Origin: Gammaproteobacteria bacterium
Lineage (GTDB): Bacteria; Pseudomonadota; Gammaproteobacteria; Ga0077554; Ga007554
NCBI GenBank assembly: GCA_040183005.1
Contig: JAMPIW010000002.1
Location: forward strand, 310,001 to 374,000
Direction: 5' to 3'
DNA length: 64,000 nt
Positions 34,739 to 61,117 of this stretch are shown in pieces. Position 1 is the first letter of the stretch. Each line of letters begins with the position of its first letter. The notes below the pieces were generated by a model that did not search any database, was not told the DNA's origin, and was given only the letters and a program-made list of their open reading frames with translations. Made by a program: the position numbers and the translations under genes.

Positions 34739-37447
34739 TTACCCTTTGAGCTTGTTGGCAATTTGCTGGCTGACATTCCGCCCCTGCACATCTTCCTCCA
34801 CCGCCATCAGGAACAGGAAGCGCCCGCCGTTGGATTGCTCCCACTGGTGGCCCACCTGCATTTTCTCTCGCGAGTCGTCGTTGGTTTTATAGGGCTCGCC
34901 CTTGTATTCGACCATCAACACCCGGCCATCGGTCAATTCACAAACGAAATCCGGATAGAAGTAATCCGTCGAAGTTGGCAACCAGAAAGAGAAACGATCC
35001 TCCCTTTCCACGTTTCGCACCCAATGCTTTATTTGCGGGTTCAGGTCGATGGCTTGGGCGCACAAGAATTCCTCAGCGAGCTGGCCGTCAGCACGCTTCT
35101 CGCGCAAGCCGTGGATCACTGGATAATAGTGATGCTGGAAACGGTAGCGCCCGGAATAGAACGGCGGTCGTGCCGGGTAATGATTGGGGTGAAAAGTGAA
35201 GGCATAACGAAAGCTCTCTTCCAGCCGTGGGGCGGCAAAAAAGCCCGGCAGCGACTTCTGAAAACCCGCCTTGACCGCAGCTTGCCTGCGCCGGTCAATC
35301 TCCCGCCGCACGGCCTCCGCCAGCGGATACTTGGCGCGCACCAGCGCCGTAAGTGTGAGACTCCGGTCGGCAATCAGGTGGCGAACCAGTGCCAACAACC
35401 ACTTGATGAGCACGGCCTGACCCACATCAATCTGGCGGCATTCCCGATCCAGCCAGCGCACCAGATCGTTTTCGCTGGCATGGGCGGCAATTTCGTTGAG
35501 GTGAAGCTGGCCGCTGTCCGTGGCCTGATAGACCACCTTGCCGCCCTCCACATCAATTTCGAAAGCCGCGCCGCTCTCGCGGATGGTAAAACCGGCCAGG
35601 TTCATCGGCTCCGCGAATAGATCAAAATCGCCTAATTCAGAAAGCAACCTTTTTTCCACCGGCTGCACTTCGCCATCCCAATCGAGGCACAGTTGCGGCA
35701 GGGGAGCGAAGCGCTCACCCCGCGCCGATGGCGCCAGCAGTGCCGCCTGCCGGGTACGCTCGCGCTCTATAGCCTCTTTCACCGCCTCTTGCTGTTTCGC
35801 GCCCTTGCAGGTCGTGAGCAGGAAATCTTCCACTGCCTCGGACAATTCTCCACGCACGATGGCCGTTGCGCCGTTCGTGGTGGGGCGTATCTCAATACAC
35901 TCCTTGAGCGCCTCGGGAATTGGTTGTGTCGGTGTTACTGGCAGTGAAATCACTGCTTCCGCCGGGCGAGGTTGGTGGTGGCCGCTGCCATCCAGCAAAG
36001 GCAATATGCTCTGCGCCGGGGCAATTGCCAGCGCGGCCTCATACGCCTCAAAGCCCATGTTGTTCACCAGTCGGTCGGCCAGTTGATCCGCCACCCGCGC
36101 GGTCACGCTAGAAACCATGTGAGCATAGGCCTTGCTCAGTTCCGGTTGATTACGCGGGCGGGCATAGGGCATACGCAGCACTCGTCCGAGAATCTGCTCC
36201 ACGTCCTTGGAGCTTTTCATGTCCTGTAAGCCGCACAGCACATAGGCAAAGGGGCAGTCCCAGCCTTCCTTGAGTGCTTCCACGGTGATGACGTAGCGGA
36301 TTGAGCAGGCCGGATCAGCTATCACGATACCGTCCAATTCCTTCTGGTCGCCGGTGGCCACGGCAATTTGCTTGCGGTCGAGTTTTTCGCCATCAGCACT
36401 CGTCAGGTGCACCAGCAGTTTTTCGACCGTAGCCTCACCGTTCTTCGGCTCGGCCTGAAACAACAGCACCGGGCGGATGAAGTCTGGCTCCCTGGCCGCC
36501 AGCGTTTCCAGTCGGTCACGGGTCAGAATGGCGTCGCGCACCGCATCTTTCCAGCCGGTCGGGTGCTCCATCAGCACGATAGGCAGCTTGATCATGTCTT
36601 CCCGCGCCAGCGCCTGCGCGCCAACGTGAAACAGCACATTGCTACCGCTTACCGGCGTGGCGGTCATTTCAATCAAACAGGCCGGGTGCAAGTTTCTAAG
36701 AGTGCGGAAGGCCAGATCGGTGCGGTTGTTGTGCGCCTCGTCCACCACCACTATCGGCTGATGGAGCGTCAGCCAGTTAGCCAGCGATGCCTTGATCTTG
36801 CCGATGTCGGCGGCAGTCAGATAAGGCTGGGCGGCAATATCCGCTTCCGTCACCTTGTCCAGCCGCGCTTCCTGTTGTGGCGTCAGTGCCTGAAAGTGGG
36901 GCGCAAGGCTTTCATCGAAGGAATAGACATTGCGCTTGGTTTTGTCGGTAATGGCAAAGGATTGAATCGTCGCCACCACGATAATGGCGGAACCGCTCAC
37001 ACTATTCTGGCCCACCTCATGCCGCCCCACTGTGGCCAGCTCATCCAGTGCGCAAACGCGGACTCTTTCGCCGAAATACTCCGTCAGCGCCTCGCGGCAA
37101 GGGTGGCGCGGTGTCGAGAGCGAGGCCAGGGTCTGGGAGCGGATGGCATCGGAAGGCACCAGCCACAAAACCACCGGCGCGTCGGTATCACAGTAACTTT
37201 TGCCTACCCGCGCCACCGCATGGGCAGCGAGAAAAGTCTTGCCGCCACCGGTGGGGATACGCACGCACACTGCAGGTACCTCGCCCAGCGCATTGGCGTC
37301 ATAATCGGCCTGCCAGGCTTGACCATTCTTTTCCTGCACCGGCGCACAATCCTGCCAGGCAGCTTCCAGCCCGGCCATGCGCAGCTTGCGAAAGAACGCA
37401 TCCAGCGTCACCAGCGCCTTGTCCTGATAATCCTTGAGCTTGAACAT
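34739..37447 (-). CDS. res: Type III restriction enzyme, Res subunit
   Basis: ATP-dependent helicase-nuclease that acts with Mod to cut DNA near pairs of unmethylated sites. 902 aa. SF2 helicase motifs: Walker A IPTGGGKTFLAAHA near residue 65, DEAH in IVVVDEAHNN, MTATPVSGSN, and QILGRVLRMPYARPR. The C-terminal PD-(D/E)xK nuclease is seen in YPDFVCELTDGRVLMVEYKGE (PD and E-x-K; shown over 21 residues as PDFVCELTDGRVL plus MVEYKGE). It is the last gene of a minus-strand operon that starts near 41034, separated from mod by three small genes. Motifs look intact, so it is probably functional. Confidence 0.93.
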   Translation of the reverse strand: MFKLKDYQDKALVTLDAFFRKLRMAGLEAAWQDCAPVQEKNGQAWQADYDANALGEVPAVCVRIPTGGGKTFLAAHAVARVGKSYCDTDAPVVLWLVPSDAIRSQTLASLSTPRHPCREALTEYFGERVRVCALDELATVGRHEVGQNSVSGSAIIVVATIQSFAITDKTKRNVYSFDESLAPHFQALTPQQEARLDKVTEADIAAQPYLTAADIGKIKASLANWLTLHQPIVVVDEAHNNRTDLAFRTLRNLHPACLIEMTATPVSGSNVLFHVGAQALAREDMIKLPIVLMEHPTGWKDAVRDAILTRDRLETLAAREPDFIRPVLLFQAEPKNGEATVEKLLVHLTSADGEKLDRKQIAVATGDQKELDGIVIADPACSIRYVITVEALKEGWDCPFAYVLCGLQDMKSSKDVEQILGRVLRMPYARPRNQPELSKAYAHMVSSVTARVADQLADRLVNNMGFEAYEAALAIAPAQSILPLLDGSGHHQPRPAEAVISLPVTPTQPIPEALKECIEIRPTTNGATAIVRGELSEAVEDFLLTTCKGAKQQEAVKEAIERERTRQAALLAPSARGERFAPLPQLCLDWDGEVQPVEKRLLSELGDFDLFAEPMNLAGFTIRESGAAFEIDVEGGKVVYQATDSGQLHLNEIAAHASENDLVRWLDRECRQIDVGQAVLIKWLLALVRHLIADRSLTLTALVRAKYPLAEAVRREIDRRRQAAVKAGFQKSLPGFFAAPRLEESFRYAFTFHPNHYPARPPFYSGRYRFQHHYYPVIHGLREKRADGQLAEEFLCAQAIDLNPQIKHWVRNVEREDRFSFWLPTSTDYFYPDFVCELTDGRVLMVEYKGEPYKTNDDSREKMQVGHQWEQSNGGRFLFLMAVEEDVQGRNVSQQIANKLKG

Positions 37448-37450
37448 GGG

Positions 37451-37633
37451 TTAATCAGCGCTTTGCTTATCGGCAGGCTCTGGCCGCACTGTAGCCGCGA
37501 CCTTATCGGCTACAATAAGCCGGGTCCCCGTTTGCTCGGCCAAGCGGCGGGCCTGCGCCGCCGCGCGCTTCATGGCTTCCTGCGACTTCAGCAAATCAGG
37601 AAAGCGCAGAATGAGTTCGGGAGGAATGGTCAT
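37451..37633 (-). CDS. Small charged protein of the restriction operon, unknown
   Basis: 60 aa. It begins MTIPPELILRFPDLLKSQEA, then an Ala/Arg-rich helix (MKRAAAQARRLAEQTGTRLI) and a charged tail. The start overlaps the toxin stop by 4 bp (ATGA) and the stop lies 3 bp before res, so it is translationally coupled on both sides. I recognise no family. It may be an accessory to the toxin pair or to Res; its reality rests on the tight spacing. Confidence 0.6.
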   Translation of the reverse strand: MTIPPELILRFPDLLKSQEAMKRAAAQARRLAEQTGTRLIVADKVAATVRPEPADKQSAD

Positions 37634-37980
37634 GGTTTGACTCCCGTGTCCAGCAGTACGCTTAATGCATGCCTGACCTCACTCTCGTCGGCACTATCCA
37701 GCCGCCCCAACACGCCCCGCACCAGGCTATGATCCAACGTAAAAAGTTTGAAGCGCACCTTTGACGGTGTGCTCAGCCCCGCTGCTTGCAGGTTATGCAA
37801 GACACAGTCAAGCGGCCAAGGTGGATTAGCCTCGGAAGTAATCATCGCCATCACCGAGTGGCCAATGGGTGTATTGAAAGCCGTTTCATCCGAAAGAATC
37901 AACGCCGGTCGGTTTTTCGTCGCATTGCGGTCGGAAAACGGGAATGGCACACGAACCACATCAAAAGCCCTATAGGTCAC
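37630..37980 (-). CDS. PemK/MazF-like toxin
   Basis: 116 aa from the GTG at 37980, which has GAGG nine bases upstream. An ATG at 37995 is possible but would overlap the antitoxin more and lacks a good binding site. Family pattern: FDVVRVPFPFSDRNATKNRPALIL (seen as VVRVPFPFSD and KNRPALILSD), then HSVMAMITSEANPPWPLDC and VRFKLFTLDHSLV. MazF-type endoribonuclease activity is likely. It overlaps the antitoxin by 11 bp and sits between mod and res, an uncommon place for a toxin-antitoxin pair. Confidence 0.85.
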   Translation of the reverse strand: MTYRAFDVVRVPFPFSDRNATKNRPALILSDETAFNTPIGHSVMAMITSEANPPWPLDCVLHNLQAAGLSTPSKVRFKLFTLDHSLVRGVLGRLDSADESEVRHALSVLLDTGVKP

Positions 37981-38179
37981 GATAAGCCACCTCATCAGCC
38001 TGCTCAGCCCATTCGGTCAAGGAGGCCGCCACTCCAAGGAGATAATCATTATCTTCCTGCAACTCGCGGCGCTTTTTTCTGGCAGCGACAAACTCAACAA
38101 AATCAAGAACCTCAAGCAAGCGCACATCGTCCATTTGATGCAAACGTTCAAGGATCTGGTTTTCCAGCAGGGTATTCAT
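37970..38179 (-). CDS. Antitoxin of the PemK-like pair (DUF2281-like)
   Basis: 69 aa from the ATG at 38179, which follows AGGAGG directly; a start at 38197 would place this binding site inside the gene. Sequence: LLENQILERLHQMDDVRLLE, VLDFVEFVAARKKRRELQ, and a C-terminal acidic stretch. The VLDFVEF helix is typical of DUF2281-like antitoxins found with PemK/MazF-like toxins. It lies 21 bp before the mod stop in gene order, cotranscribed with the R-M genes. Confidence 0.8.
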   Translation of the reverse strand: MNTLLENQILERLHQMDDVRLLEVLDFVEFVAARKKRRELQEDNDYLLGVAASLTEWAEQADEVAYRDL

Positions 38180-38200
38180 GGGTTTCCTCCTGTTCAAAGA

Positions 38201-39775
38201 TTAGCGCGCCTTGATGTCGTAGGGAATCTGCTTGAAGGTAATGCCCGCCTCGCGCAAGCGCGTCTCACCCAATCGGGTGGTTTCGCCGTAGATCACGCGT
38301 GGACCATCATGGGGGAACTGTTCTTCAAGGTGCGCCAGCACAGTGGAAGTCAGTACGTTTCCGCCCTGCGGTCGCCGGTCACCCAGGATGCCGTTATAGA
38401 GTAGATAATAGGCCGTGCCGTTATGGATGCCGAGCAAGGGTGTTGGCATTGGCATTAGCGCACCCTCTCCCCCTGCGGGGGGAGAGGGCTGGGGTGAGGG
38501 GGGCAATCCCCACGGCTCCCCAGTCTCGAAATGCCAGAGAAAGGCGGCCAGCGCCTTGAATCGCACGGCGGGGTGAATGCCGCCATCGGCATCGAACACC
38601 GGCTCGCCCAGGGTGTGAAAGCGGAAACCGCCGCCGCCCTGCCAGCCGATGGTTTTTGAAATGCCGCCCTGCTCGCCATCAATCACTTTTTGCAGTCGTG
38701 GCAGGCAATGGGTGACGGCGTGCTCTCCCATCTCGATGCCGATCCAGCGGCGGCCCATTTTATGGGCTACGGCAGCGGTCGTGCCGCTGCCAAGGAAGCT
38801 GTCTAGCACGAGATCGCCGGGGGTCGAGGCAATGTGGAGGATGCGTTGCAAAAGAAGTTCCGGCTTGGGGGTGCCAAAAGCGTTTGAGAACAATGCTTTC
38901 TGCTCTGTCATTGAGATCTGTGTACTGCCAGCATCCGATGCCGTCCAGACACTTCTTGGAACCACGGGTTCTGCATTGGTAAGGAACATTTTCATCCGAG
39001 GAGCTTTTGAGTCGCCGTTCTTTCCCCAATATAGCAGTCCCTGTTCCTCATTCTTGCGGTGCGTTTCTTCGCCGTAACGCCATGTAAGGGTTTTTGGAGG
39101 AAAAACCAGTTCGTTTGTATTTGGATTTCGGATGCCGTAGTACAGATTCGGTCGTTCTGCTCGCGTTTTGTTGCCGGTATATGTTACGGAGTTCCAGTCC
39201 CCACGCGTGTCGTTATCCGGGTTTTTGTAGTACGAGTTTTGCAACTCAGTGCGCTCAAGGCGGTTTAACGACCACGTATTTTTTTTCTTTGCGAAAACTA
39301 TTACGTTGTCGTGGTCGCTGCTGAAATGAGTGGCATCGTTGGCAGGAGAAACTCGTTTCTGCCAAACCACATTCGTCACAAAATTCGACCGCCCGAATAC
39401 TTCATCCATCAACACCTTCAGGTAATGCCCCTCGTTGTCGTCTATGGTCACCCAGATGCTGCCGTCCTCGGCCAGCAGTTCGCGCAGCAGCACCAGGCGG
39501 GGATACATGGTGGAAAGCCATTGCGAGTGCTCCAGCTTGTCGTCGTAATGCTCGAAGGCGGATTGGGTGTTGTACGGCGGGTCGATGAAGATGCACTTCA
39601 CCTGCCCCCGGTAGAAAGGCAGCAGCGCTTTCAGCGCCTTGAGGTTGTCGCCCTGAATCAGCAGATTTTCCGCGCTGGTATCACCATGCGCGGATTCAAA
39701 TTGCAGCAGGTGGTAAGGCACATCGGCGGCACTGCTCACCGCCTGGGCCTTATTCACCCAATCGAGAAACGGCAT
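38201..39775 (-). CDS. mod: Type III DNA methyltransferase, Mod subunit
   Basis: Adenine-N6 methyltransferase that gives the R-M system its sequence specificity. 524 aa. The catalytic motif IV DPPYNTQS is at about residue 65, followed by the target-recognition region (about 130-290) and then SAM motif I DSFLGSGTTAAVAHKMGR near residue 325, the beta-class order. A run PPSPQPSPPAGGEG at about residues 427-440 is encoded by a palindromic repeat inserted in frame (38459-38502) and is unlikely to be native. First R-M gene after the DUF1828 module, 6 bp from it. Confidence 0.93.
   Translation of the reverse strand: MPFLDWVNKAQAVSSAADVPYHLLQFESAHGDTSAENLLIQGDNLKALKALLPFYRGQVKCIFIDPPYNTQSAFEHYDDKLEHSQWLSTMYPRLVLLRELLAEDGSIWVTIDDNEGHYLKVLMDEVFGRSNFVTNVVWQKRVSPANDATHFSSDHDNVIVFAKKKNTWSLNRLERTELQNSYYKNPDNDTRGDWNSVTYTGNKTRAERPNLYYGIRNPNTNELVFPPKTLTWRYGEETHRKNEEQGLLYWGKNGDSKAPRMKMFLTNAEPVVPRSVWTASDAGSTQISMTEQKALFSNAFGTPKPELLLQRILHIASTPGDLVLDSFLGSGTTAAVAHKMGRRWIGIEMGEHAVTHCLPRLQKVIDGEQGGISKTIGWQGGGGFRFHTLGEPVFDADGGIHPAVRFKALAAFLWHFETGEPWGLPPSPQPSPPAGGEGALMPMPTPLLGIHNGTAYYLLYNGILGDRRPQGGNVLTSTVLAHLEEQFPHDGPRVIYGETTRLGETRLREAGITFKQIPYDIKAR
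38459..38502. repeat. Palindromic repeat inside the mod coding sequence
   Basis: CCCTCTCCCCCTGCGGGGGG with AGAGGGCTGGGGTGAGGGG: a GC-rich hairpin of the CCCTCTCCC...GGGAGAGGG family that is common between genes. Here it lies in frame within mod and encodes a Pro/Ser/Gly-rich insert. Confidence 0.75.
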
Positions 39776-43821: not shown

Positions 43822-45142
43822 CAGAAGTGTCCGGCAATTTCGCAAAGACGGCTATATAACATGATGATGTTGAATAGGAAAGTGTGTGTTTAGGGGTGTC
43901 ACCGACTTGAACGTGAATTTTTTGGGAAACTGGGGCTTTCCCCCCAGGAGTTTCCGTCATGTATTCAGGCCAGTTGGTGTTCGCACAACTCATGGAGCAT
44001 TTGCCCCTTCACACATTCCGTCGCTGCGTGCAGCGCTACCCTTCCAAATATCCCACCAAGACTTTTTCGCATCTCGATCAATTTCTCTGCATGGCGTTCG
44101 CGCAGCTGACTTACCGCGAAAGCCTGCGCGACATCGAAACCTGTCTGCGCGCCCACCAAGCCAAGCTCTATCACTTGGGCATACGAGGCAACATCGCCAA
44201 GAGCACGCTGGCCGATGCCAACGAGCAACGCGACTGTCGCATCTACGCGGATTTCGCGATGAGCTTAATCCAGACCGCCAGAAAGCTTTACGCCAGCGAC
44301 AGCTTTGCGGTCGAACTGGAACAGACGGTCTACGCACTCGATACCACGACCATCGACCTGTGCTTGAGCGTCTTTCCGTGGGCACGCTTCCGCTCCACCA
44401 AAGCTGCCGTCAAGATGCATACGCTGCTCGACCTGCGCGGCAACATTCCAACCTTCATCCACATCAGCGATGGCAAGATGCACGAGGTCAATGTGCTCGA
44501 TATCCTGATACCCGAAGCCGGCAGCTTTTACATCATGGATCGTGGCTTCACCGACTTCGCTCGCTGGTTCACCCTGCATCAAGCACAGGCGTTCTTTGTC
44601 ATCCGTGGCAAATCCAATCTGCTCTTTCGTCGCGTCTACTCTCGCACCGTGGACAAGTCCACTGGACTGCGCTGCGACCAGACCATTGCATTGACTGCTC
44701 GCAAGGCCAGCAAGGATTACCCGCAGCACCTGCGACGCATCAAGTTCTACGATGCCGAACACGACAGGTTTCTGGTCTTTCTGACCAACAACTTCGACCT
44801 GCCTGCGCTGACCATCGCTCAGCTTTATCGTTGCCGCTGGCAGGTCGAGCTATTCTTCAAGTGGATCAAACAGCATCTTCGAATCAAGCGGTTCTATGGC
44901 ACCACCGAGAATGCAGTCAAGACGCAAATATGGATCGCCATCGCGGTTTACGTCGTGGTCGCCATCGTGAAAAAGCGGCTCAATACCGAGGCTTCGCTTT
45001 ACACAATCCTACAGATTTTGAGCCTGACTCTTTTCGAGAAAACGCCACTCGATCAATTACTTAAAAATGCGGAGACGCAAATGAGCATGCAGAAAGACAA
45101 TAACCAATTGAATCTATTCAATTAAATTACCGGACACTTCTG
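43822..45142 (+). mobile_element. IS4-family insertion sequence, copy B (1321 bp)
   Basis: Same length, ends and transposase as copy A at 410-1730, in the same orientation. Flanked by 9-bp direct repeats TAAACATGT (43813-43821 and 45143-45151). It is inserted in the right direct repeat behind the SWIM gene. The lack of visible differences from copy A points to recent transposition. Confidence 0.97.
43959..45125 (+). CDS. IS4-family transposase, copy B
   Basis: 388 aa, identical in translation to the transposase at 547-1713: the same DUF4372-type N-terminus, Asp motifs YALDTTTIDL and IMDRGF, and YREK signature YRCRWQVELFFKWIK. The frame is intact. It stands downstream of the SWIM gene; the IS end separates it from the Dabb/alr genes, which are on the opposite strand. 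Confidence 0.95.
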   Translation: MYSGQLVFAQLMEHLPLHTFRRCVQRYPSKYPTKTFSHLDQFLCMAFAQLTYRESLRDIETCLRAHQAKLYHLGIRGNIAKSTLADANEQRDCRIYADFAMSLIQTARKLYASDSFAVELEQTVYALDTTTIDLCLSVFPWARFRSTKAAVKMHTLLDLRGNIPTFIHISDGKMHEVNVLDILIPEAGSFYIMDRGFTDFARWFTLHQAQAFFVIRGKSNLLFRRVYSRTVDKSTGLRCDQTIALTARKASKDYPQHLRRIKFYDAEHDRFLVFLTNNFDLPALTIAQLYRCRWQVELFFKWIKQHLRIKRFYGTTENAVKTQIWIAIAVYVVVAIVKKRLNTEASLYTILQILSLTLFEKTPLDQLLKNAETQMSMQKDNNQLNLFN

Positions 45143-50798: not shown

Positions 50799-53531
50799 CT
50801 AATTTTGAACTGACAACGAAGGCCGGAGCTTTTTCTGCGCCTGCCCCATCCCAAGGTCATAAATATCACGATCCAGGGGGCTGACCACCTTGAGCCGGGC
50901 ACGATATAAGGCCGCCATTTTACCATCGCCGGCATCCTTCTCCACGCGCCATAAAGCCCGTAAGGCCTCGGCATGATCTGGACGCACCTTCAAAATAGCC
51001 TGCAACGCCTGCCGTTTGTTCATACCGTGATCCAGCGCCTGCGGCAATGTCGCCAGCATTTTGTCGGCCAGATCAAAACCAATCCAGCGATCACGGGGAT
51101 TGGCTTCAAAGGCGAGGCGCATCAGACGCTGCGCTTCGCCCGTATTATCACCCCGTAGAGCGGCGACCCAGCTTCTCACCGCCAAAAAAGAGGCCACATA
51201 GCTGCGCTCGAATTCCTGCATGGCATTAGCCGGCACATTCAAGGCGAGCGCTGCCTGCATCAAGCCAGGCCGCTGCCCCAGCAGCCTAGACAATAACGCA
51301 TCAAGATTAAATGCATCACGGTATCGCGCGCGCGGTAAACGGTATTCGATCTGCGGCGCCCATTCGTCTTGCACCGGACCCACACTCGGCGGAATCGGTC
51401 CCCAGTACCGGCCCAGCCATGTCCATGCGCCCTCCCCGCCCGTCGCGGCGGACTGCCCGGCTTGCGCCAGACGGCCCAAATTTGCGAGCAAGGCGGGCGC
51501 GCCCTGCACAACATCCTTCGGACCTACCAGCGCGACACGGAAACCGTCCATAAAAATGACCGCGCCGGGGAAAACCTGTCGAAAACTGCGGAAAATAATA
51601 TCCAGCGATCCGGCATCAAACTGATTGAGCGCCAGCCACTGCACAAACAACCCATTTTCCGTCAACCTGTCACGGGCGCGCTGAAACTGTTGCACGGATA
51701 ACAAGGCGCTATGCCCAACCAGATCGGGATGAAACAAATCGCCGATAATGACATCGTAATGCCCTGTGTCCCGGCGTAAAAAGCGCCGCGCGTCATCTCG
51801 CGTCACAGCCAGCTTGCCCATCACATTCTGATTCACCGGCGCAAACCACTGCGCCGCCGCTGTAATAGCCCCCTGCGAAAGCTCCACTGCCTTGCGTGAC
51901 AATTGCGGGTACGGCAGCGATCCCGCCGCAGATATCCCCGTGCCCAAGCCAAGAAACAGTACCGAGCGCGGCGCGGGGTGCAGCATCAATGGCAGACGGG
52001 CCTGATTTTGCTGCGCCTCGACAGCAGCGGGATCGGAAGATGCGTCCATACGTTGCAAATCGGCCAGCAACAAACGCTGATCGTCGATCCGCTCCACAAC
52101 GTGCGTAATGGATATGGCGTCTTCATGCACATAAACATCCTGGCTGCCCGCCTGAGTCACGGGCAGCAGCGCACTCACCGCAGGCAGTTCATACACCCTG
52201 CCCACCCCCGCCAGCACCACTACGCCAAGCATAGCCAGCCAGGGCCAGCGTCCATCAGCCCACGCCATGCCGCACGCGAACAATGCAACTGCCGCCACGC
52301 ACAGAGTGGCCATGGTTCCCAGCCAGGGTATGAGCACGAATCCCGCCAGCACCGCACCCAACGCCGCACCGAGCGAATTGACGCCATACAGCCACGACCC
52401 CGTGCCATGCTGATCCCCCAGCCGGCTATTGAGCAATGGCAACCACGCGCCGAGTATAAACGTCACCGGCAAGGTCAGCGCGGCGACAGCCAGGCCTTGC
52501 CACCACAATGCACCCGCGAGGGATGAAAAATGTGCTTGTTCGACCCATCCCGCCAACTTCGGCACCAGCCACAGACCCAGCAGGCTAAAACTGCCCCCTA
52601 GCAATGGCAGAACGGCAAACCAGCGCACACCGCGCATGTGCCGTGCCGCCAGACTACCCAGACCAATACCCACCAGGAACACTGCCAACAGTACTGCCAG
52701 CACATACTCGGTACGCAGCAGGATCATGCCGAACAGACGCGTCCAACCCACCTGCAGCATCAATGCCGCCGCGCCCACACCAGCATAGGCAGCAAGCGAC
52801 ACGAAAGATAACCGCGCAACGCCTCCCTCTGGGTTTTCCTTCGCGGTCGCGGCATTCGTCAGTGGCGTAAAGGACAGAAAAAATGCCGCTATGCCCACAC
52901 ACAAGCCGATGCCAGCAACCACCTGCACCGCGCTAGACCATCCCAGCCATGGCAACAGCAGCAAGGGCAATAACGCTCCCACCGCGCCACCCACAGCATT
53001 GAAGCCATAGATCTTGCCTAATGAGACGCTGGGTGATGCGGCGCCGCCCGCAAGCACCCTCAGCACCAGAGGGAATCCCGCCCCCATCGCCAGCGCCGGG
53101 ATAAAGAGCAACACCAATGCAGTCAGGGATTGCAATACATACCAGGCCGTGAGGCTCGCCTGCGCAGCGTACACACCCAGCCAGCCATCGAACATCTGCT
53201 GCATCCACGGCATGCACAAGGCATAGAGAGCAATCCCAACCTCCAGCGCGGCAAAAGCCACCAGCGGCGCCCGTATGTTGCGTGCAAACCTCACTCCCAG
53301 CAAACTGCCCAGACCAAGGCCAGCCATGAAGGTGGCAACCGTCACCACCACACCGAAAATGCTGACGCCAAACTGCAAGCCCAACATGCGAGCCCACAAG
53401 ACTTCATAGGCAAGACTGGTAAGGCCAGAGACAAAATAGAGCAGGATCAGCACCCAAACCCAAAGACGGGGGACACTGGCTTGTGGAGAGAAACCGCTCA
53501 ATTCGGGATTGAGCGCCTGATCAACTTGCAT
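50799..53531 (-). CDS. Fused MFS-like membrane domain and spermidine-synthase-like domain
   Basis: 910 aa. Residues ~20-470 form many membrane helices (LTSLAYEVLWARMLGLQFGV is the typical opening; FVLIPWLGTMATLCVAAVAL near the end). A spermidine-synthase-type SAM/dcSAM-binding fold follows at ~510-700: RSVLFLGLGTGISAAGSLPY, AVTRDDARRFLRRD, YDVIIGDLFHPD, LTENGLFVQWLAL. A helical, TPR-like C-terminus ends it (NTGEAQRLMRLAFEANPRDR, ILKVRPDHAEALRALWRVEK). Such fusions are widespread and of unknown function; true aminopropyl transfer is doubtful. It follows the HCO cluster but has its own terminator. Confidence 0.85.
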   Translation of the reverse strand: MQVDQALNPELSGFSPQASVPRLWVWVLILLYFVSGLTSLAYEVLWARMLGLQFGVSIFGVVVTVATFMAGLGLGSLLGVRFARNIRAPLVAFAALEVGIALYALCMPWMQQMFDGWLGVYAAQASLTAWYVLQSLTALVLLFIPALAMGAGFPLVLRVLAGGAASPSVSLGKIYGFNAVGGAVGALLPLLLLPWLGWSSAVQVVAGIGLCVGIAAFFLSFTPLTNAATAKENPEGGVARLSFVSLAAYAGVGAAALMLQVGWTRLFGMILLRTEYVLAVLLAVFLVGIGLGSLAARHMRGVRWFAVLPLLGGSFSLLGLWLVPKLAGWVEQAHFSSLAGALWWQGLAVAALTLPVTFILGAWLPLLNSRLGDQHGTGSWLYGVNSLGAALGAVLAGFVLIPWLGTMATLCVAAVALFACGMAWADGRWPWLAMLGVVVLAGVGRVYELPAVSALLPVTQAGSQDVYVHEDAISITHVVERIDDQRLLLADLQRMDASSDPAAVEAQQNQARLPLMLHPAPRSVLFLGLGTGISAAGSLPYPQLSRKAVELSQGAITAAAQWFAPVNQNVMGKLAVTRDDARRFLRRDTGHYDVIIGDLFHPDLVGHSALLSVQQFQRARDRLTENGLFVQWLALNQFDAGSLDIIFRSFRQVFPGAVIFMDGFRVALVGPKDVVQGAPALLANLGRLAQAGQSAATGGEGAWTWLGRYWGPIPPSVGPVQDEWAPQIEYRLPRARYRDAFNLDALLSRLLGQRPGLMQAALALNVPANAMQEFERSYVASFLAVRSWVAALRGDNTGEAQRLMRLAFEANPRDRWIGFDLADKMLATLPQALDHGMNKRQALQAILKVRPDHAEALRALWRVEKDAGDGKMAALYRARLKVVSPLDRDIYDLGMGQAQKKLRPSLSVQN

Positions 53532-54020: not shown

Positions 54021-54260
54021 CTACGCCTCCTCTGGCTCCTTGGCTACCTCAGCCCCCTCCGCACGCTTACGCATGGCAAAATACCAATAAAGGATCGCAA
54101 TAATAATGATGGGACCCAACACCATGGGCAACAGAAACAGAAAAATGAACCAAGGGGTATCAATCGTAACATGCAAATAGCGGTAGCTATCTAATGCCAG
54201 GGCAGAATCTGACAACACCAGCAGCGAAAAAGCGCCCATTAAACCAACATATTTTTTCAT
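54021..54260 (-). CDS. 79-aa membrane protein, last gene of the HCO unit
   Basis: Signal peptide or first helix (VGLMGAFSLLVLSDSALA), a periplasmic segment (LDSYRYLHVTIDTPW), then a long helix (FIFLFLLPMVLGPIIIIAIL) and a charged cytoplasmic tail. The layout (Sec signal, short exposed loop, one helix) is like small accessory subunits of respiratory complexes. No family recognised. It lies 15 bp after the SUMF1-type gene. Confidence 0.75.
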   Translation of the reverse strand: MKKYVGLMGAFSLLVLSDSALALDSYRYLHVTIDTPWFIFLFLLPMVLGPIIIIAILYWYFAMRKRAEGAEVAKEPEEA

Positions 54261-54275: not shown

Positions 54276-55340
54276 TCAGGAGGAGCCAGCGTCTTTAGCG
54301 CAACGAAACCCAAAAAAATCGGACGCAGCATAAGGCCAGGAAAAATTCCGGTGATATGTCGAGGTGGAAAATGGATCGCTCTTCCAAGAGCCGCCGCGCA
54401 GAACCTTGTAGCGTTTTTCTGTGGGCACCAAATCGACAACTTTCAGCGACCTGTCCGCCGCCGAATTTATTTGAGCAACCTTGGCCTTAAAAACATCCTC
54501 CGGCGCATCACTGCCCGCATACGGCAGCAGATCATTTTCAACCCACTGACTGACATTGCCCGCCATACCAAGCACCCCATAGGGACTTGCTCCTGAAGGA
54601 TAAGCTGTTACGGGCGTGGTTGAGCCTACTGAATAATAGGTATTCAATCGCGTCGGGTCCATTTTATCCCCCCATGGCCAGCGCCGTCCATCCACGCCGC
54701 GCGCTGCCTTCTCCCACTCCGCTTCAGTGGGCAAGCGTTTCCCCGCCCATTTTGCGTAACTCACCGCATCAAACCACGACACCATCGTCACAGGATGCAG
54801 CTCGGTGCCCTCGGGAATCCTGCCCTTACGCCAATTCAGAGGCGGCCGATGACCCGCCGCCACAAAACGCGCATATTGGGCGTTGGTTACCGGGTATTTG
54901 TCAATCAGATAGGTTTTTAATACAACGCGATGCTGCGGACGGTTTTGCATATCATCACGCTCACGATCCGTCCCCATCGCAAATTCACCAGCGGGGATCG
55001 ACAGCATCGAATCCACTTCACGCCACTGTTCAGGCGTCAGCAGCGCCTCCACCTCGGCTAGCGTGTAAGCTGCCGCCACAGGCCCCGCTTTCGCTTTGTT
55101 CTTGTTAAGGGTTATATCCTCACCTGCTGCCCGGATCTTGCTATGCATCTCCTTGAGATCGTAAGAGGCTTTACTGCGCATATCCGCCATGCGGTTGGAG
55201 CCGAGCTTCACTACATGCAAAGTTGCAAAGATCATGGTCAAGGCAACACATGAAACCAAAGTCGCCGCAATATACCGTTTGCGTATAGCAATCTGCACTG
55301 GTGTAGCAACTCGCCCACCACGTATCCCACCCGACCTCAC
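54276..55340 (-). CDS. Membrane-anchored SUMF1-fold protein in the HCO cluster
   Basis: 354 aa. An N-terminal helix (YIAATLVSCVALTMIFATLH, ~23-42) anchors it, a charged linker follows, then a SUMF1/formylglycine-generating-enzyme fold (~115-354): MLSIPAGEFAMGTDRERDD, KYPVTNAQYARFVAAG, MVSWFDAVSYAKWAGKRLPT, EAEWEKAARG, GMAGNVSQWVEND, VLRGGSWKSDPFSTST, FFGFRCAKDA. The two cysteines that bind copper in active FGEs, expected after RGGS, are absent, so formylglycine formation is unlikely. Related non-catalytic SUMF1 proteins include NirV beside copper nitrite reductases. It overlaps the 174-aa gene by 4 bp. Role in complex assembly is an inference. Confidence 0.88.
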   Translation of the reverse strand: MRSGGIRGGRVATPVQIAIRKRYIAATLVSCVALTMIFATLHVVKLGSNRMADMRSKASYDLKEMHSKIRAAGEDITLNKNKAKAGPVAAAYTLAEVEALLTPEQWREVDSMLSIPAGEFAMGTDRERDDMQNRPQHRVVLKTYLIDKYPVTNAQYARFVAAGHRPPLNWRKGRIPEGTELHPVTMVSWFDAVSYAKWAGKRLPTEAEWEKAARGVDGRRWPWGDKMDPTRLNTYYSVGSTTPVTAYPSGASPYGVLGMAGNVSQWVENDLLPYAGSDAPEDVFKAKVAQINSAADRSLKVVDLVPTEKRYKVLRGGSWKSDPFSTSTYHRNFSWPYAASDFFGFRCAKDAGSS

Positions 55341-55861
55341 TTGTCTACTCCAGACGGGACACCATCGGTAACTGGCAAGCTCTCAGGAACCAACTCGTCG
55401 CCGCCTGCTTTTTTGTAAATCCTGTAGCGCAAATGCCTGGGGGTACGCCCATAGGTCTTCTTTATAATAACCTCACCCACCAATCCACCGAGACCAGCGA
55501 ACTCCATGGCAATTAGAACAACCAACGCCCAGTAGACAACAGGAAGCAGCCTGGCACCCTCCGGCATCACGGCGCCACCGTAAAATGCGTCCAGATACTT
55601 ATACCCCTGCACAATAAAAGGCACAAAAAATGCCAATAGCTTACCCCCAAACCCATAAATCAGCGCAACGGGGAGCCCGGCAACAAACGGTATAAAAAAG
55701 AGGGTGATAGCCCAATCATAGGTGAAGTAATCAATTCCGAAAAATAAATGCAACTGGACACCTGTCCAACTATCACCAATAACATTAATTAAAACTCCCA
55801 CCGTTACGGCAGCAGCCGCGACTAGAACATCAAGAAGTCTAATTTTTATTTTCCCGTTCAT
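55337..55861 (-). CDS. Polytopic membrane protein of the HCO cluster, unknown
   Basis: 174 aa with about four helices: LLDVLVAAAAVTVGVLINVI, WAITLFFIPFVAGLPVALIY, LLAFFVPFIVQGYKYL, LPVVYWALVVLIAMEFAGLG. A cytoplasmic basic patch (KKTYGRTPRHLRYRIYKKAG) and a polar tail follow. A His at VQLHLFFGIDYFTYDW lies at the membrane edge. It overlaps both neighbours by 4 bp, so it is coupled to the cytochrome c and SUMF1 genes. No family recognised. Confidence 0.75.
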   Translation of the reverse strand: MNGKIKIRLLDVLVAAAAVTVGVLINVIGDSWTGVQLHLFFGIDYFTYDWAITLFFIPFVAGLPVALIYGFGGKLLAFFVPFIVQGYKYLDAFYGGAVMPEGARLLPVVYWALVVLIAMEFAGLGGLVGEVIIKKTYGRTPRHLRYRIYKKAGGDELVPESLPVTDGVPSGVDK

Positions 55862-56367
55862 TGGGGCGTTTTACCTGCTGCGAGATAAGGTTTGCCTGTC
55901 AGCTTTTCAAACTCTGCCTTTTTAGTCTCTTCCAAATACCAGTCCTGCACCTTAAGGCTAGCCATATAAGAAGCGAGGACTTTACGCTCATCCTCGGAAA
56001 GATGCGCATAAGAAGGCATTTTATACATCTTCTTCAATCGCGTAGGCAGAATCACCTGAGGATTCTCGGCAGAGAAATACGTATAAAACCACTGTTCATC
56101 ACGCAATGAACCAATGCCATCCAATGCCGGGGCCGGCACATTAGCACTCATATCACGCACGCTCCACAACGAGTGGCAGTTTTTACATTCAAGGCGGCGA
56201 TAAAGATCGGAACCTGCAACCTCCAACTTGGAAGACGCCGCTGAATAAAAGGGGATGCCACGATCCACCTCTTTTTTTTCGGTACTCAATTGCCATATTT
56301 TATGGCCCACCAGCACCACAGACAATACAGCAATAACGGCAAGAATGCCTTTCTCGCCTTTACGCAT
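55858..56367 (-). CDS. Membrane-anchored monoheme cytochrome c
   Basis: 169 aa. N-terminal helix (GILAVIAVLSVVLVGHKIWQ) anchors the protein with the C-terminal domain in the periplasm. Heme c motif CKNCH at ~61-65 (LECKNCHSLWSV); the likely Met ligand is in KKMYKMPSYAHL. A typical class I c-type fold end follows: DERKVLASYMASLKV. It probably delivers electrons to the CcoN/CcoO-like core, taking the place of the missing diheme CcoP. It overlaps the 174-aa gene by 4 bp. Confidence 0.88.
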   Translation of the reverse strand: MRKGEKGILAVIAVLSVVLVGHKIWQLSTEKKEVDRGIPFYSAASSKLEVAGSDLYRRLECKNCHSLWSVRDMSANVPAPALDGIGSLRDEQWFYTYFSAENPQVILPTRLKKMYKMPSYAHLSEDERKVLASYMASLKVQDWYLEETKKAEFEKLTGKPYLAAGKTPQ

Positions 56368-56375: not shown

Positions 56376-56636
56376 CTACTTGTTTTTCTTTGCCAGGTTC
56401 TCTTCCCGACGCTGCATCTGCTGCTTCATCACTTCCTGGCTTTTCGCGAAATCCTCGGGTGACATCTTGTTCTTATCCTTCTCATCGAAGATAACGTATT
56501 TAATGTCTTCATCAAACTGCTCGTTCTTGGCCGCCCACCACATAAAATAACCAGCCACAATCAAAATCATTGCCGCAGCGACAAGCCAAACATATATGGT
56601 CCAACCATCAGGTAAAGATTGCAGATATTCAGTCAT
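56376..56636 (-). CDS. CcoS-like small membrane protein
   Basis: 86 aa. One helix (IYVWLVAAAMILIVAGYFMW) is followed by WWAAKNEQFDEDIKYVIFDE, which resembles the CcoS pattern (W-x-x-x-x-G/N-Q-F-D-D...). CcoS is needed for heme and Cu loading of cbb3 oxidases. A Lys/Glu-rich tail (KQQMQRREENLAKKNK) is extra. It supports a cbb3-type relationship for the cluster; assignment is by motif only. Confidence 0.65.
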   Translation of the reverse strand: MTEYLQSLPDGWTIYVWLVAAAMILIVAGYFMWWAAKNEQFDEDIKYVIFDEKDKNKMSPEDFAKSQEVMKQQMQRREENLAKKNK

Positions 56637-56645: not shown

Positions 56646-56993
56646 CTAGAAGAGGTAACCTTCGATCATTTGCGTCCAACCAAAAATCACCCCAATAATA
56701 ATGCCCATAATGAGGGCGCCGAACATCACCTTTTCCCCGGTTTTCAATACACGCTTGCTTTTTTTCATGTAAATGAAAATCATGAAGGAAAACAATATAA
56801 CCTGCATGATTAAAAAAACGAAAATGGCAATACTGTAACGATGGCTATTCAACCCTTCAATGGTCAGATCCAGGCCAAAAAGAGCGCTGGGGCCTTCTTG
56901 CACCTTTACTAGCATCGCTCCAGAATATTCCCCGAACCGGGCATTTGCAAGAAGAGTTGAAAAGAGAGACTGAAACTCATTCCACATATTCAT
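56646..56993 (-). CDS. 115-aa membrane protein of the HCO cluster, unknown
   Basis: Start taken at the ATG at 56993 (MNMWNEFQSLFSTLL), about 13 bases after AGG; an ATG two codons on is possible, and the open frame to 57068 adds a non-typical basic leader. Two helices: SIAIFVFLIMQVILFSFMIF and VMFGALIMGIIIGVIFGWTQ, between basic loops. An N-terminal amphipathic stretch contains EYSGAMLVKVQEGP. It is the first gene of the second transcription unit. Family not recognised. Confidence 0.7.
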   Translation of the reverse strand: MNMWNEFQSLFSTLLANARFGEYSGAMLVKVQEGPSALFGLDLTIEGLNSHRYSIAIFVFLIMQVILFSFMIFIYMKKSKRVLKTGEKVMFGALIMGIIIGVIFGWTQMIEGYLF

Positions 56994-57157
56994 AATTAAA
57001 TACTTACCTAACACACCGTATCGCCGCATGATAAGAATGGGCATTATCCAATGCGCCCGCCTCGTCACTCAAGCCCATCGTCACTCTATCCACGGGCCAA
57101 AGATCAACCCTATGCCAAGTTGGACAGAAGCTGGCAATGATGGTTCGTTTTTTTGAG

Positions 57158-57275: not shown

Positions 57276-57428
57276 CTACTTGAATGCCTCGGCATCCTTT
57301 GCCATTTGCTTGTCTTCCTTATGCTCCCGCCAGTATTTATCCACGATTGTGCTGTACAGCAGGGGGGCACCAAATACAAAGGCAATGATTCCTGCCGTCA
57401 CATAAGAGAGATTGTCGATATCTATCAT
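57276..57428 (-). CDS. 50-aa single-helix protein, CcoQ-like in size
   Basis: MIDIDNLSYVTAGIIAFVFG, APLLYSTIVDKYWREHKEDK, QMAKDAEAFK. One helix (~10-27) is followed by a strongly charged cytoplasmic tail, the layout of CcoQ and other small oxidase subunits. GAGGA lies nine bases before the ATG, and the gene is packed between the 210-aa gene and a terminator, so it is very probably real. No sequence family is recognised. Confidence 0.75.
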   Translation of the reverse strand: MIDIDNLSYVTAGIIAFVFGAPLLYSTIVDKYWREHKEDKQMAKDAEAFK

Positions 57429-57455: not shown

Positions 57456-58088
57456 TCAAGTGGTGACGGGTTTCTTGGAAAAGTGCGGCAAGCGTTTGAT
57501 CATAATGATCATCCACAAGCAGTAGTAGCTCACGTAGAATACATCGATAGTGTATCCCTTGTCCCACCACGGCTGCTTACGCTCCCTGACGCCATCGGCA
57601 CGGAAGTTGCCCTCGAAGTTCGCCAACACAACTGTATCACCCAACACTGTGAAGTTATCGAGAGGATACTTGGTCTGCTTCTGCAACTCAATGATGTGTG
57701 GGGCCAGATTCTGCAAGTCATACCAATCAATGGGATGACGCTCAAGCTGACCTTTCAAAGCATTATCCGGTGCCCTGTTATACGCCTCGGTGTTGATGTA
57801 CTTCATCTTCTCCTCAGCCGTAGCCAGCTTCTGCACCTCCGGAGAATTCATCAACTCCACATGAGTTTGGTAAATCGCAGCTGTTGGCCTTTGCCCCCAT
57901 ATCGGCATGGTAAGCATGAACGCCGTGAGGATGATCAGTGCGATCAGGAACGTCAGCGCGAAGGGCAGGCGATTATTCGCCGGGTGTATCAACCCACCCA
58001 TCCTTTCCTCACCCCACATCTTTAATATTTCCTGCTGCTCTTGCTCATCGGAAAGCGAGTACAGCGGGTTATCCATTTTCCAGGCCAT
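57456..58088 (-). CDS. 210-aa membrane protein of the HCO core operon, unknown
   Basis: Long polar N-terminus (LSDEQEQQEILKMWGEERMG), first helix FALTFLIALIILTAFMLTMP, a periplasmic domain (~65-175) with conserved-looking aromatic and charged residues (PIDWYDLQNLAPHIIELQKQ, YPLDNFTVLGDTVVLANFEG), and a C-terminal helix (IDVFYVSYYCLWMIIMI). No CxxCH or copper motif. It takes the place of CcoP in gene order after the CcoO-like gene but is not a cytochrome. Family not recognised. Confidence 0.78.
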   Translation of the reverse strand: MAWKMDNPLYSLSDEQEQQEILKMWGEERMGGLIHPANNRLPFALTFLIALIILTAFMLTMPIWGQRPTAAIYQTHVELMNSPEVQKLATAEEKMKYINTEAYNRAPDNALKGQLERHPIDWYDLQNLAPHIIELQKQTKYPLDNFTVLGDTVVLANFEGNFRADGVRERKQPWWDKGYTIDVFYVSYYCLWMIIMIKRLPHFSKKPVTT

Positions 58089-58116: not shown

Positions 58117-59091
58117 TTACTTCAGACTCAGAACCCAGTCAATCAAAGCCCGTATTTCGCTATTGGGCGCGTAATCAGGCACTTCTGGCGGATAGGTTCT
58201 CTTGCCGACGGAGTATTCCAGATACTCGGCGCGCCACTTATCAAAATCGATAGTGTTGCCTTGAGCATCTTTATCGCCCCATAGGTAGTCATAACGCGGC
58301 ATGATGGAGTTGACCTGCACCAATCTTGGATTGAAGAAGTGCATCATCATCCACTCGCGAGAGGAGTTTCTGGAGGCTACATGGAGAATATCCGGTGCTT
58401 TACGGTCGGAACCGAAGGCGGTCGGGTTTTCACCATTGAAGTCGCCCAGATAGGGGGGGGCGCCAAAAGCCTGCCAATCCTGAGTCTGCTCAGGCAAGAG
58501 TGTATGGCACCACCAGCAACCTTGCACGACAAACTCCGTCTTGCCTTTGGAAATGAGATGGGTATTCTTATCTCCGGCAGCAGCGAGGGTAGCATCAGGC
58601 GTCCAGCCCTTGGTTACCGAGGCATTCTCGATGTAGGTCAGCTCTTCACCATTGAACTCTCCGAGCGCCAGTGTGAAAACCACACCTTCCTGAGTCCCTT
58701 TGGTATGGTTCGAGCCGCTGACAGCGGTAATCTGACCCTGGCTTTCGCTCAGGTCGTATACGCCCTTACCCAGATCGTGGGGATGCCGGATATTCGGCGG
58801 CATCGGAACACCTGGCTTGTACACATACGCTCTGATTGGCGGATCCAATTTGGCACCTGTTTTGGGGTCCGTTTCCAGGTCGACAGTAATAGGCCTGTTG
58901 ATACCCAGCAGCAGCGGATCAGCATAACCAAAGCCTATGTCAAAGCCCGCGGACAACTGCTTCTCCAAGGCCATCTTGGTTGACACCGCAGATCTCAAAT
59001 CGAAGCTAGGCATGAACAGCGTGATTGTCATCGAGAGCCCCAACGCGCCCCCGACCATTGCAGCACCTAATCTATACTCTTTAAAAGCCAT
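58117..59091 (-). CDS. CcoO-like monoheme cytochrome c subunit
   Basis: 324 aa from the ATG at 59091, which has GGAGGG six bases upstream. N-terminal anchor (MVGGALGLSMTITLFMPSFD). Heme c motif CWWCH in VVQGCWWCHTLLPEQ at ~170-182, with the CcoO-like block FGSDRKAPDILHVASRNSSR and EWMMMHFFNPR, and the Met ligand in NSIMPRYDYLWG. CcoO is ~200 aa; this one has ~120 extra residues between anchor and heme (YADPLLLGINRPITVDLETD, VFTLALGEFNGEELTYIE). It follows the CcoN-like gene and probably passes electrons to it. Confidence 0.87.
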   Translation of the reverse strand: MAFKEYRLGAAMVGGALGLSMTITLFMPSFDLRSAVSTKMALEKQLSAGFDIGFGYADPLLLGINRPITVDLETDPKTGAKLDPPIRAYVYKPGVPMPPNIRHPHDLGKGVYDLSESQGQITAVSGSNHTKGTQEGVVFTLALGEFNGEELTYIENASVTKGWTPDATLAAAGDKNTHLISKGKTEFVVQGCWWCHTLLPEQTQDWQAFGAPPYLGDFNGENPTAFGSDRKAPDILHVASRNSSREWMMMHFFNPRLVQVNSIMPRYDYLWGDKDAQGNTIDFDKWRAEYLEYSVGKRTYPPEVPDYAPNSEIRALIDWVLSLK

Positions 59092-59182
59092 TTTTATCCC
59101 TCCCAACTATTGGTTCACATTATATCCCCCGGCAACCTGGCGTCCGGGGGATTTTAGGATGTAACGATATCAGATGTCTCTT

Positions 59183-60592
59183 TTAACGCTCGTATGCCAG
59201 TTCATGGGCATAACGGCCATCTGGAACCAACGTACCTACACGGGCAGTCATCCACATATTGTAGAGCCACACCAAATTACCGGTAAACACCATGGTGCCC
59301 CCAATCCAGCGTGCAATCATGTAGGGATGCTCTGCAATCACGACGTCGATATAAGGCACTTCATAGACCTTGCCTGCACCCTGGATCAGACCTGCAATGG
59401 TCATGGATATCCAGTAGGTACAGAAACCGATCAGCACGAACCAGTAGTGGAAGTTGGCTAAAGCCAAGGAATACAGCTTTCTCTTCAGCATTTGTTGCAG
59501 ACCGAAGTAGACCGCCGCAATTTCCAGGAAGGTTGACATACCCAGCAAAGCTAAATGGGCGTGAGCCACAATCCAACCCGTACCATGGATGAACCAGTTA
59601 ATGGAGCGGGTTTGCTGGAATCCACCCTGCATGTTTAGTGGGATCGCCAAAAACACGCCGGTAATGGAGAATTTGACTTCCATGTTCTCCACAAACATGC
59701 TCCATTTGCCTTTCATGGTCAACAGAATATTGGCAACAAAGGCAACGGCGGGGATCAAAATCAACACGCCTTCTACTGAGGCGAATGACTTCAACCATTC
59801 AGGCAACGGCGAAGACATCAAGTGATGCGAGGCCGGGGTAGAATAAAACACGACAATCGACCAAAAGTGCATATGGCCAATACGGTGTGAGTAGAGCGGA
59901 TTACCTGTCAGCTTGGGGATCGTATAGTACGCAATCGCAGCAGCAACGGGCGTAATCCACAGACCCAGAAGATTATGGGCGTTCCACCACGTCAGGTAGG
60001 CTTCGGATAAGCCTGTAAGGTGGAAGTACTCAGGGGAGTTACCCACCAGCAATACGATACCCACCATGAAGGTACAGGCGCCGAAAAACCAGTTGGTGAT
60101 GTAAATACCTTGCGTACGACGGTGAGCAATCGTCATGATGACGTTGACGCACAACGGCGTGATTACACCAAACAGGATCACCAGATCAAACGGCCAAGCA
60201 AAATCGGAATACTCACGGCCCGATGTAATACCGATCCAGAGACTAATAAGCGCAGAGGACAGACCCACGTTCCACAGGAGCGCCGTCCACAGACCTAATT
60301 TTTCCGACCACATGCGGGTATTACCCAGCGCTGGCGTCATGTACATCATGGTCATGGCGAAGGCCATGGAAATCCAGCCAACGATCACCGCGAGAACGTG
60401 CACCTGTCGCATGTGACCAAAAGCGAACAACTCAGTGCCGGTCACAAAGTCCGGGAACGCCAGCTTGGCGGCATTGAACGAGCCCAAACCTGTCCCTACC
60501 ACAAACCAGAAAATAGCGGAAAACCCAAAGAATATCGCCGCTGATCCTGGCGGGATATCCTCATTCTTTGCGGACAAATATTTAAATAACAT
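59183..60592 (-). CDS. Divergent cbb3-like heme-copper oxidoreductase, catalytic subunit
   Basis: 469 aa with about 12 helices. Low-spin heme ligand in FGHMRQVHVLAVIVGW. CuB His in WWNAHNLLGLWITP and SHHLMSSPLPEW. The helix-VII Tyr in VVFYSTPASHHL aligns with the cross-linked Tyr of CcoN. The heme pair is in WIVAHAHLALLG. All match the CcoN pattern (Y-x-x-x-x-x-H-H; GHVH becomes AHAH). Where CcoN has STFEGPMMS, this protein reads GVFLAIPLN, so the active-site-near Glu is missing. It is probably an O2 or NO reductase of the C family; which one is open. AGGTGAGGGG precedes the ATG. The best analogue is not a standard CcoN. Confidence 0.88.
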   Translation of the reverse strand: MLFKYLSAKNEDIPPGSAAIFFGFSAIFWFVVGTGLGSFNAAKLAFPDFVTGTELFAFGHMRQVHVLAVIVGWISMAFAMTMMYMTPALGNTRMWSEKLGLWTALLWNVGLSSALISLWIGITSGREYSDFAWPFDLVILFGVITPLCVNVIMTIAHRRTQGIYITNWFFGACTFMVGIVLLVGNSPEYFHLTGLSEAYLTWWNAHNLLGLWITPVAAAIAYYTIPKLTGNPLYSHRIGHMHFWSIVVFYSTPASHHLMSSPLPEWLKSFASVEGVLILIPAVAFVANILLTMKGKWSMFVENMEVKFSITGVFLAIPLNMQGGFQQTRSINWFIHGTGWIVAHAHLALLGMSTFLEIAAVYFGLQQMLKRKLYSLALANFHYWFVLIGFCTYWISMTIAGLIQGAGKVYEVPYIDVVIAEHPYMIARWIGGTMVFTGNLVWLYNMWMTARVGTLVPDGRYAHELAYER

Positions 60593-60811: not shown

Positions 60812-61117
60812 CTAGAAATACGCTGGCTTTTCACCCTTAGCGATCGCAGCAGCCTCAAGCGCGCCATGCCTAGCCATCGCCATTACCATAATGATAAAGA
60901 ACGCAGCCCCAAAGACGAACATCATCCAGTCGACAAACCCCGAAAAAGTCGCCGGATTATAAGCATCCATACCCCAACCGCCCCAGCTTTCGTAGGGGCC
61001 ACGCCCTACGGCGCACATCACTGCAGCGCCGAACACACTTCCATTACCCATGCCGGTGGTAAAGCCACCGATAAAAGCGGGGAAAAAAATCTTCCCCAGA
61101 GTCAGCTTATTATTCAT
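60812..61117 (-). CDS. 101-aa membrane protein, first gene of the HCO core operon
   Basis: Two or three helices: IFFPAFIGGFTTGMGNGSVF, GAAVMCAVGRGPYESWGGWG, FVDWMMFVFGAAFFIIMVMA. The Gly/Trp-rich middle and MARHGALEAAAIAKGEKPAY at the C-terminus are notable. GGAGGG lies five bases before the ATG. No family recognised. Being first in the unit, it is probably an accessory or assembly subunit of the complex. Confidence 0.75.
   Translation of the reverse strand: MNNKLTLGKIFFPAFIGGFTTGMGNGSVFGAAVMCAVGRGPYESWGGWGMDAYNPATFSGFVDWMMFVFGAAFFIIMVMAMARHGALEAAAIAKGEKPAYF

What the first reader, a model, noticed from the sequence alone, without database searches (positions are those of the whole stretch)
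59183..60592. Catalytic subunit keeps the Tyr and all His ligands but has lost the active-site-near glutamate
The helix-VII tyrosine (VVFYSTPASHHL) and CuB histidines are kept, as in O2-reducing cbb3. The Glu of the CcoN block STFEGPMMS aligns with Leu in GVFLAIPLN. In cbb3 this Glu region serves proton entry, and in cNOR glutamates lie at the active site. Its loss points to a changed proton path or a different reaction. The alignment was made by eye.
Basis: partly seen in the sequence, partly recalled or inferred. Interest (0 to 1): 0.65.

Follow-up and report, generated by a model that had tools for sequence, protein, structure and literature searches.

The report
Divergent cbb3-type oxidase, glutamate replaced by glutamine
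The gene makes the core of an unusual oxygen-respiring enzyme, shared by iron- and nitrite-oxidising bacteria, in which the acidic residue near the active site has been swapped for glutamine and the proton path around it rebuilt, so it very probably still makes water from oxygen but may move protons differently from textbook cbb3 oxidase.

Summary
Window 59183-60592 (minus strand) encodes a 469-aa C-family heme-copper subunit I (CcoN-like). All His ligands and the helix-VII Tyr are kept. Gln322 is invariant in 114/114 distinct relatives, while canonical CcoNs have Glu (21/21). Other K-channel-region positions also changed (Y237H, S240G, I241H, S276G), and new conserved acids appeared (Glu274, Glu357). 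The gene sits in a conserved operon with two CcoO-like cytochromes, a CcoS-like protein, a formylglycine-enzyme-like protein and unknown membrane proteins, but no recognisable CcoP. The clade occurs in Ca. Nitrotoga, Gallionella, Sideroxydans, Ferrovaceae, a biocathode MAG and a second class (probably Zetaproteobacteria). In three Nitrotoga genomes and the window's own genome it is the only full-length heme-copper subunit I, and no bd oxidase was found, so O2 reduction is the best reading and NO reduction is unlikely. Papers already call such enzymes cbb3 (Ferrovum: 'missing subunit III'; 'proximal/distal' forms); the remodelled proton-path residues were not mentioned in the passages I read.

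The parts
59183..60592 (-). CcoN-like catalytic subunit I, 469 aa; ligands H65, H206, H256, H257, H344, H346; Tyr250
59627..59629 (-). codon of Gln322, the position of CcoN Glu323; Gln in 114/114 distinct relatives
   Evidence: alignment; coordinates computed from the gene start
59771..59773 (-). codon of Glu274 (TM VIII), clade-specific acid next to the lost Ser276 position
   Evidence: 113/114
59522..59524 (-). codon of Glu357 (TM X), clade-specific acid at the CcoN Ser358 position
   Evidence: 114/114
60812..61117 (-). 101-aa membrane protein, first gene of the cluster; conserved H84/E88 in the second TM
   Evidence: found in 80/80 loci; residues
60647..60739 (-). 30-aa single-TM ORF upstream of subunit I; a similar 67-aa ORF lies at the same place in L070
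   Evidence: by eye only
58117..59106 (-). CcoO/FixO-like monoheme cytochrome c (CWWCH) with a long inserted domain, 329 aa
   Evidence: PF02433 52 bits; 80/80 loci
57456..58088 (-). 210-aa membrane protein of unknown family
   Evidence: 77/80 loci
57276..57428 (-). 50-aa single-TM ORF, possible CcoQ-like small subunit
   Evidence: inference from size and place
56646..57068 (-). ORF of 140 aa (true start probably further in), membrane protein
   Evidence: 70/80 loci
56376..56636 (-). 86-aa CcoS/FixS-like protein
   Evidence: PF03597 23.4 bits, just over its cut-off of 23.1; 74/80 loci
55858..56367 (-). second CcoO-like monoheme cytochrome c, 169 aa (CKNCH)
   Evidence: 76/80 loci
55337..55861 (-). 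174-aa polytopic membrane protein with conserved intramembrane K74, E130, K134
   Evidence: 69/80 loci; residues
54276..55340 (-). membrane-anchored formylglycine-generating-enzyme-like protein, 354 aa
   Evidence: PF03781 190 bits; 71/80 loci
54021..54260 (-). 79-aa single-TM protein (DSYRYLHVTIDTPW), counterpart in L025, L060 and L070
53562..54005 (-). 147-aa membrane protein
   Evidence: 64/80 loci
50799..53531 (-). 910-aa membrane protein with a spermidine-synthase-like domain, end of the conserved cluster
   Evidence: 62/80 loci; PF01564

Best explanation
This is the catalytic subunit of a divergent C-type (cbb3-like) cytochrome c oxidase that reduces O2 to water. Electrons most likely enter from periplasmic cytochromes c through the two CcoO-like monoheme subunits to heme b and the heme b3-CuB centre (inferred from the kept ligands and neighbouring genes). 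The Glu323 position carries an invariant Gln, which can hydrogen-bond but not carry a proton. Proton delivery must therefore bypass it, probably through a remodelled K-type path built around His236/His240/His242, Tyr250 and perhaps Glu274 or Glu357 (inferred). Shown by sequence: residue replacements, kept ligands, operon, distribution, absence of other oxidases. Inferred: O2 as substrate, the route of protons, and whether pumping is changed.
For: C-family fold and sequence: only cbb3 structures match by sequence (3MK7 E=1e-61), and Foldseek ranks 3MK7 first. Ligands and Tyr are invariant and Q322 is 114/114. Zero gaps between H206 and H346. Separate clade with 100/100 support. Conserved operon. 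Sole full-length heme-copper subunit I with no cydA in the host genome and in three Ca. Nitrotoga genomes. Ca. Nitrotoga is described as respiring nitrite electrons to O2 with a cbb3-type oxidase (PMC6050957). Concerted K-channel-region changes and new acids.
Against: No biochemistry. The AlphaFold model is weak (mean pLDDT 54.8, lowest around residues 158-295 and 317-348), so side-chain geometry and proton routes are untested. Sole-oxidase arguments rest on genome sets of finite completeness and on PF00115/PF01654 only. Whether Glu323 is essential in ordinary cbb3 was not found in the papers read.
Confidence: 0.78

Rival explanations
1. The enzyme is a nitric oxide reductase or catalyses another reaction, and the lost Glu reflects the new chemistry.
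For: Active-site-near residues differ from canonical CcoN; the half-CcoN and cytochrome genes around it are unusual.
Against: The two glutamates that mark cNOR (Glu211 and Glu280; PMC3431322) have no counterpart (G210, Q322). The helix-VII Tyr and three CuB His are kept. It is the only oxidase candidate found in three Nitrotoga genomes and the host genome. No NOR structure matches by sequence at E<=0.001.
Confidence: 0.06
2. Glu323 is dispensable; the E-to-Q change and neighbouring changes are neutral drift and proton uptake and pumping are the same as in textbook cbb3.
For: Gln is isosteric with Glu. The more distant C-family protein L017 also has Gln there.
Against: Gln is fixed (114/114) while canonical CcoNs are 21/21 Glu. 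Four other K-channel-region positions and the subunit set changed as well.
Confidence: 0.22
3. The operon encodes a larger respiratory assembly in which the oxidase and the two half-CcoN modules also help drive uphill electron flow, rather than a stand-alone oxidase.
For: Of the 15 named genomes searched with PF00115, 14 carry two half-length paralogues, and one is usually in the operon. In Ca. Tenderia a terminal-oxidase homologue called complex IV-2 clusters in expression with alternative complex III and complex I (PMC5371394). The host has RuBisCO and a QrcB/ActB-type molybdoprotein.
Against: No physical evidence. The half modules cover only the last part of PF00115 and so lack the CuB ligands, and the host's copy lies about 333 kb away on the contig.
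Confidence: 0.1

Closest known systems
Canonical cbb3 oxidase subunit CcoN (P. stutzeri, PDB 3MK7)
   Same: Twelve-helix C-family fold, about 30% identity, all heme and CuB ligands and the helix-VII Tyr, CcoO-like partner, CcoS-like gene
   Different: Glu323 is Gln; Y237H, S240G, I241H, S276G, D340G; new E274 and E357; no recognisable CcoP; extra subunits including an FGE-like protein; half-CcoN paralogues
cbb3-type oxidase of Ferrovum JA12 described as lacking subunit III (PMC4725956) and the 'proximal/distal' ccoN forms of iron oxidisers (PMC10734462, PMC7029218, PMC8788666)
   Same: Same groups of organisms. In JA12 only subunits I and II plus co-located c-type cytochromes, with tag spacing (FERRO_02570, 02560, 02510) that fits this operon's order
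   Different: I could not match the published distal sequences directly. The passages read do not mention the residue changes
Ca. Tenderia electrophaga complex IV-2 (PMC5371394)
   Same: A highly expressed terminal-oxidase homologue in a biocathode autotroph, distinct from its canonical ccoNOPQ
   Different: Identity with this clade is an inference; its sequence was not compared
cNOR (NorB)
   Same: Related fold (Foldseek rank 8, RdNOR 4XYD)
   Different: Lacks NOR Glu211 and Glu280; keeps Tyr

Membership tests
C-type (cbb3) heme-copper oxygen reductase | CcoN-like 12-helix subunit I with six His ligands | tested here: met
C-type (cbb3) heme-copper oxygen reductase | Active-site Tyr on helix VII | tested here: met
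   Y250 in all sequences; the His-Tyr cross-link itself is not testable here
C-type (cbb3) heme-copper oxygen reductase | Glu323 near the active site | tested here: not met
   Gln322, 114/114; canonical Glu 21/21
C-type (cbb3) heme-copper oxygen reductase | K-channel-region residues Tyr237, Ser240, His243, Ser276 (channel roles partly from memory) | tested here: not met
   only the His is kept (H242); Y237H, S240G, S276G
C-type (cbb3) heme-copper oxygen reductase | CcoO monoheme subunit | tested here: met
   PF02433 52 bits, with a long insertion; below the ccoO equivalog cut-off
C-type (cbb3) heme-copper oxygen reductase | CcoP diheme subunit in the operon | tested here: not met
   no CcoP-like gene between the 101-aa gene and the 910-aa gene; two monoheme CcoO-like cytochromes instead
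NCBIfam ccoN equivalog (TIGR00780) | score over the curated cut-off of 583 | tested here: not met
   225.8 bits
Distal cbb3 subtree (Ducluzeau 2008) | placement in the published tree | not testable with these tools
   the paper and its sequences are not held; the deep split is compatible
Nitric oxide reductase (cNOR) | Glu at NorB 211 and 280, no helix-VII Tyr | tested here: not met
   G210, Q322, Y250
O2 reduction as activity | oxygen consumption by the enzyme | not testable with these tools
   only the sole-oxidase argument

The most novel reading that the evidence does not exclude
A second design of C-type oxygen reductase, used by bacteria that live on high-potential electron donors (Fe2+, nitrite, cathodes), in which proton delivery no longer uses the conserved glutamate but a histidine-rich path with relocated acids, inside a larger complex that includes an FGE-like protein and half-CcoN heme modules, with an H+/e- ratio tuned to a small driving force.
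Probability: 0.35. Interest if true: 0.65.

Novelty: new variant of a known kind. Interest (0 to 1): 0.45.

Why it matters
Genome papers on Nitrotoga and Ferrovum treat these enzymes as proton-pumping cbb3 oxidases by homology and build energy budgets on that. If the proton path is rebuilt and the carboxylate near the active site is gone, the pumping stoichiometry of a respiratory enzyme of iron and nitrite oxidisers is an open question that can be measured. It also offers a natural E-to-Q variant fixed across several lineages for testing what this residue does in C-type oxidases.

Tried and rejected
Leu315 as the Glu replacement: rejected, ungapped register and variable column. NO reductase: rejected as main reading (see rivals). 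Structure prediction with 29 close homologues: mean pLDDT 54.8, lowest around helices VI-IX, so not used for side-chain geometry. The fold search was used only for overall fold. First alignment A1 mixed strands and was discarded. Cyc2 iron-oxidase motif: 0 matches in the host and its family, so the host cannot be called a Cyc2 iron oxidiser. Literature searches for the residue by name (E323, Glu323) gave nothing on cbb3.

Full report
What is there. The ORF at 59183-60592 is on the minus strand and encodes 469 aa. It matches PF00115 with 249 bits. Its only relatives among solved structures by sequence at E<=0.001 are cbb3 CcoN chains, best 3MK7 (E 1e-61, about 30% identity). A structure prediction was poor (pLDDT 54.8), but Foldseek still ranks 3MK7 first, then other cbb3 chains, then an NOR.

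The residue in question. The HMMER alignment and a MAFFT alignment with canonical CcoNs from other genomes agree. From the CuB ligand H206 (H207 in 3MK7) to the heme ligand H346 (H347) there is not one gap, so the register is fixed from both sides. Glu323 of CcoN falls on Gln322, not on Leu315. Leu315 sits opposite Phe316 and varies between Leu, Met and Phe, whereas Gln322 is Gln in all 114 distinct relatives. No shifted register supplies an acid.

It is not an isolated change. Compared with 21 canonical CcoNs the clade has Y237H, S240G, I241H, S276G and D340G, while H243, Y251, R57 and E122 are kept and E125 is Asp. New conserved acids inside predicted helices are Glu274, one residue from the lost Ser276, and Glu357 on helix X (113/114 and 114/114). 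Whether they compensate is not shown. In the small subunits, conserved charged residues in predicted membrane segments include E88 of the 101-aa protein and K74, E130 and K134 of the 174-aa protein. The 210-aa protein has no conserved acid in its predicted TM segment.

The operon. The same gene order recurs in about 80 loci: 101-aa protein, subunit I, CcoO-like cytochrome, 210-aa protein, 140-aa ORF, CcoS-like, second CcoO-like cytochrome, 174-aa protein, FGE-like protein, small membrane proteins, 910-aa protein. It is often preceded by a monoheme cytochrome, a half-length CcoN-like protein and a thioredoxin-like protein. No CcoP-like gene is present. In the window's genome the half-CcoN group lies elsewhere on the same contig (L157).

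Who has it. Named relatives at 78-99% identity are uncultured Gammaproteobacteria, Ca. Nitrotoga, Gallionella, Sideroxydans, Ferrovaceae and a biocathode MAG. A second class of the same phylum carries it at 66-79% in about half of 78 genomes. That class is probably Zetaproteobacteria. This is inferred from its size and from two single-contig genomes without any hit, which fit the aa3-only CP strains (PMC5513912). The clade is a separate, fully supported branch from canonical CcoN.

What it does. In Ca. Nitrotoga LAW, HW29 and MKT, the window's genome, the biocathode MAG and several others, this protein is the only full-length heme-copper subunit I and no cytochrome bd was found. Ca. Nitrotoga is described as respiring O2 on nitrite with a cbb3-type oxidase (PMC6050957). 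O2 reduction is therefore the best reading. The NOR glutamates are absent (PMC3431322).

What is known. Such enzymes are already reported as cbb3. Ferrovum JA12 has subunits I and II with a missing subunit III and co-located cytochromes (PMC4725956), whose tag spacing fits this operon. Iron oxidisers are reported to have proximal and distal ccoN. Ca. Tenderia has a highly expressed complex IV-2. I found no discussion of the residue changes in the passages read, but most subscription literature is not held.

Limits. The substrate and the proton route are inferred. Roles of Y237, S240 and S276 as K-channel residues rest partly on memory. The host lacks the Cyc2 motif. It has RuBisCO, NapA and a QrcB/ActB-type molybdoprotein, so it is probably an autotroph of unknown donor.

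Noticed in passing
window 410-1730 and 43822-45142: Two identical 1321-bp copies of an insertion sequence (DDE transposase with DUF4372) bounded by the inverted repeat CAGAAGTGTCCGG/CCGGACACTTCTG.
   Followed up: partly
L157 7683-8210 and L158 10695 (host contig C2): Two half-length CcoN paralogues (175 and 179 aa, matching only the last part of PF00115 with its HxH motif). 14 of 15 searched named genomes with this oxidase have two such half copies; their role is unknown.
   Followed up: partly
window 54276-55340: A membrane-anchored formylglycine-generating-enzyme-like protein is a conserved member of a respiratory operon; why is unexplained.
   Followed up: partly
window 34739-39775: ResIII-type helicase next to an N6/N4 DNA methylase, probably a type III restriction-modification pair.
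   Followed up: no
window 6956-14214: Carbon-metabolism cluster: class II aldolase, pyruvate kinase, PGK, GAPDH, transketolase.
   Followed up: no
L017 (genome of another family in the same class): A distant C-family protein also has Gln at the Glu323 position, but with a Glu four residues on (QGSIE) and no His at the H243 position; a further variant not studied here.
   Followed up: no
window 50799-53531: 910-aa multi-helix protein with a spermidine-synthase-like domain travels with the oxidase operon.
   Followed up: no
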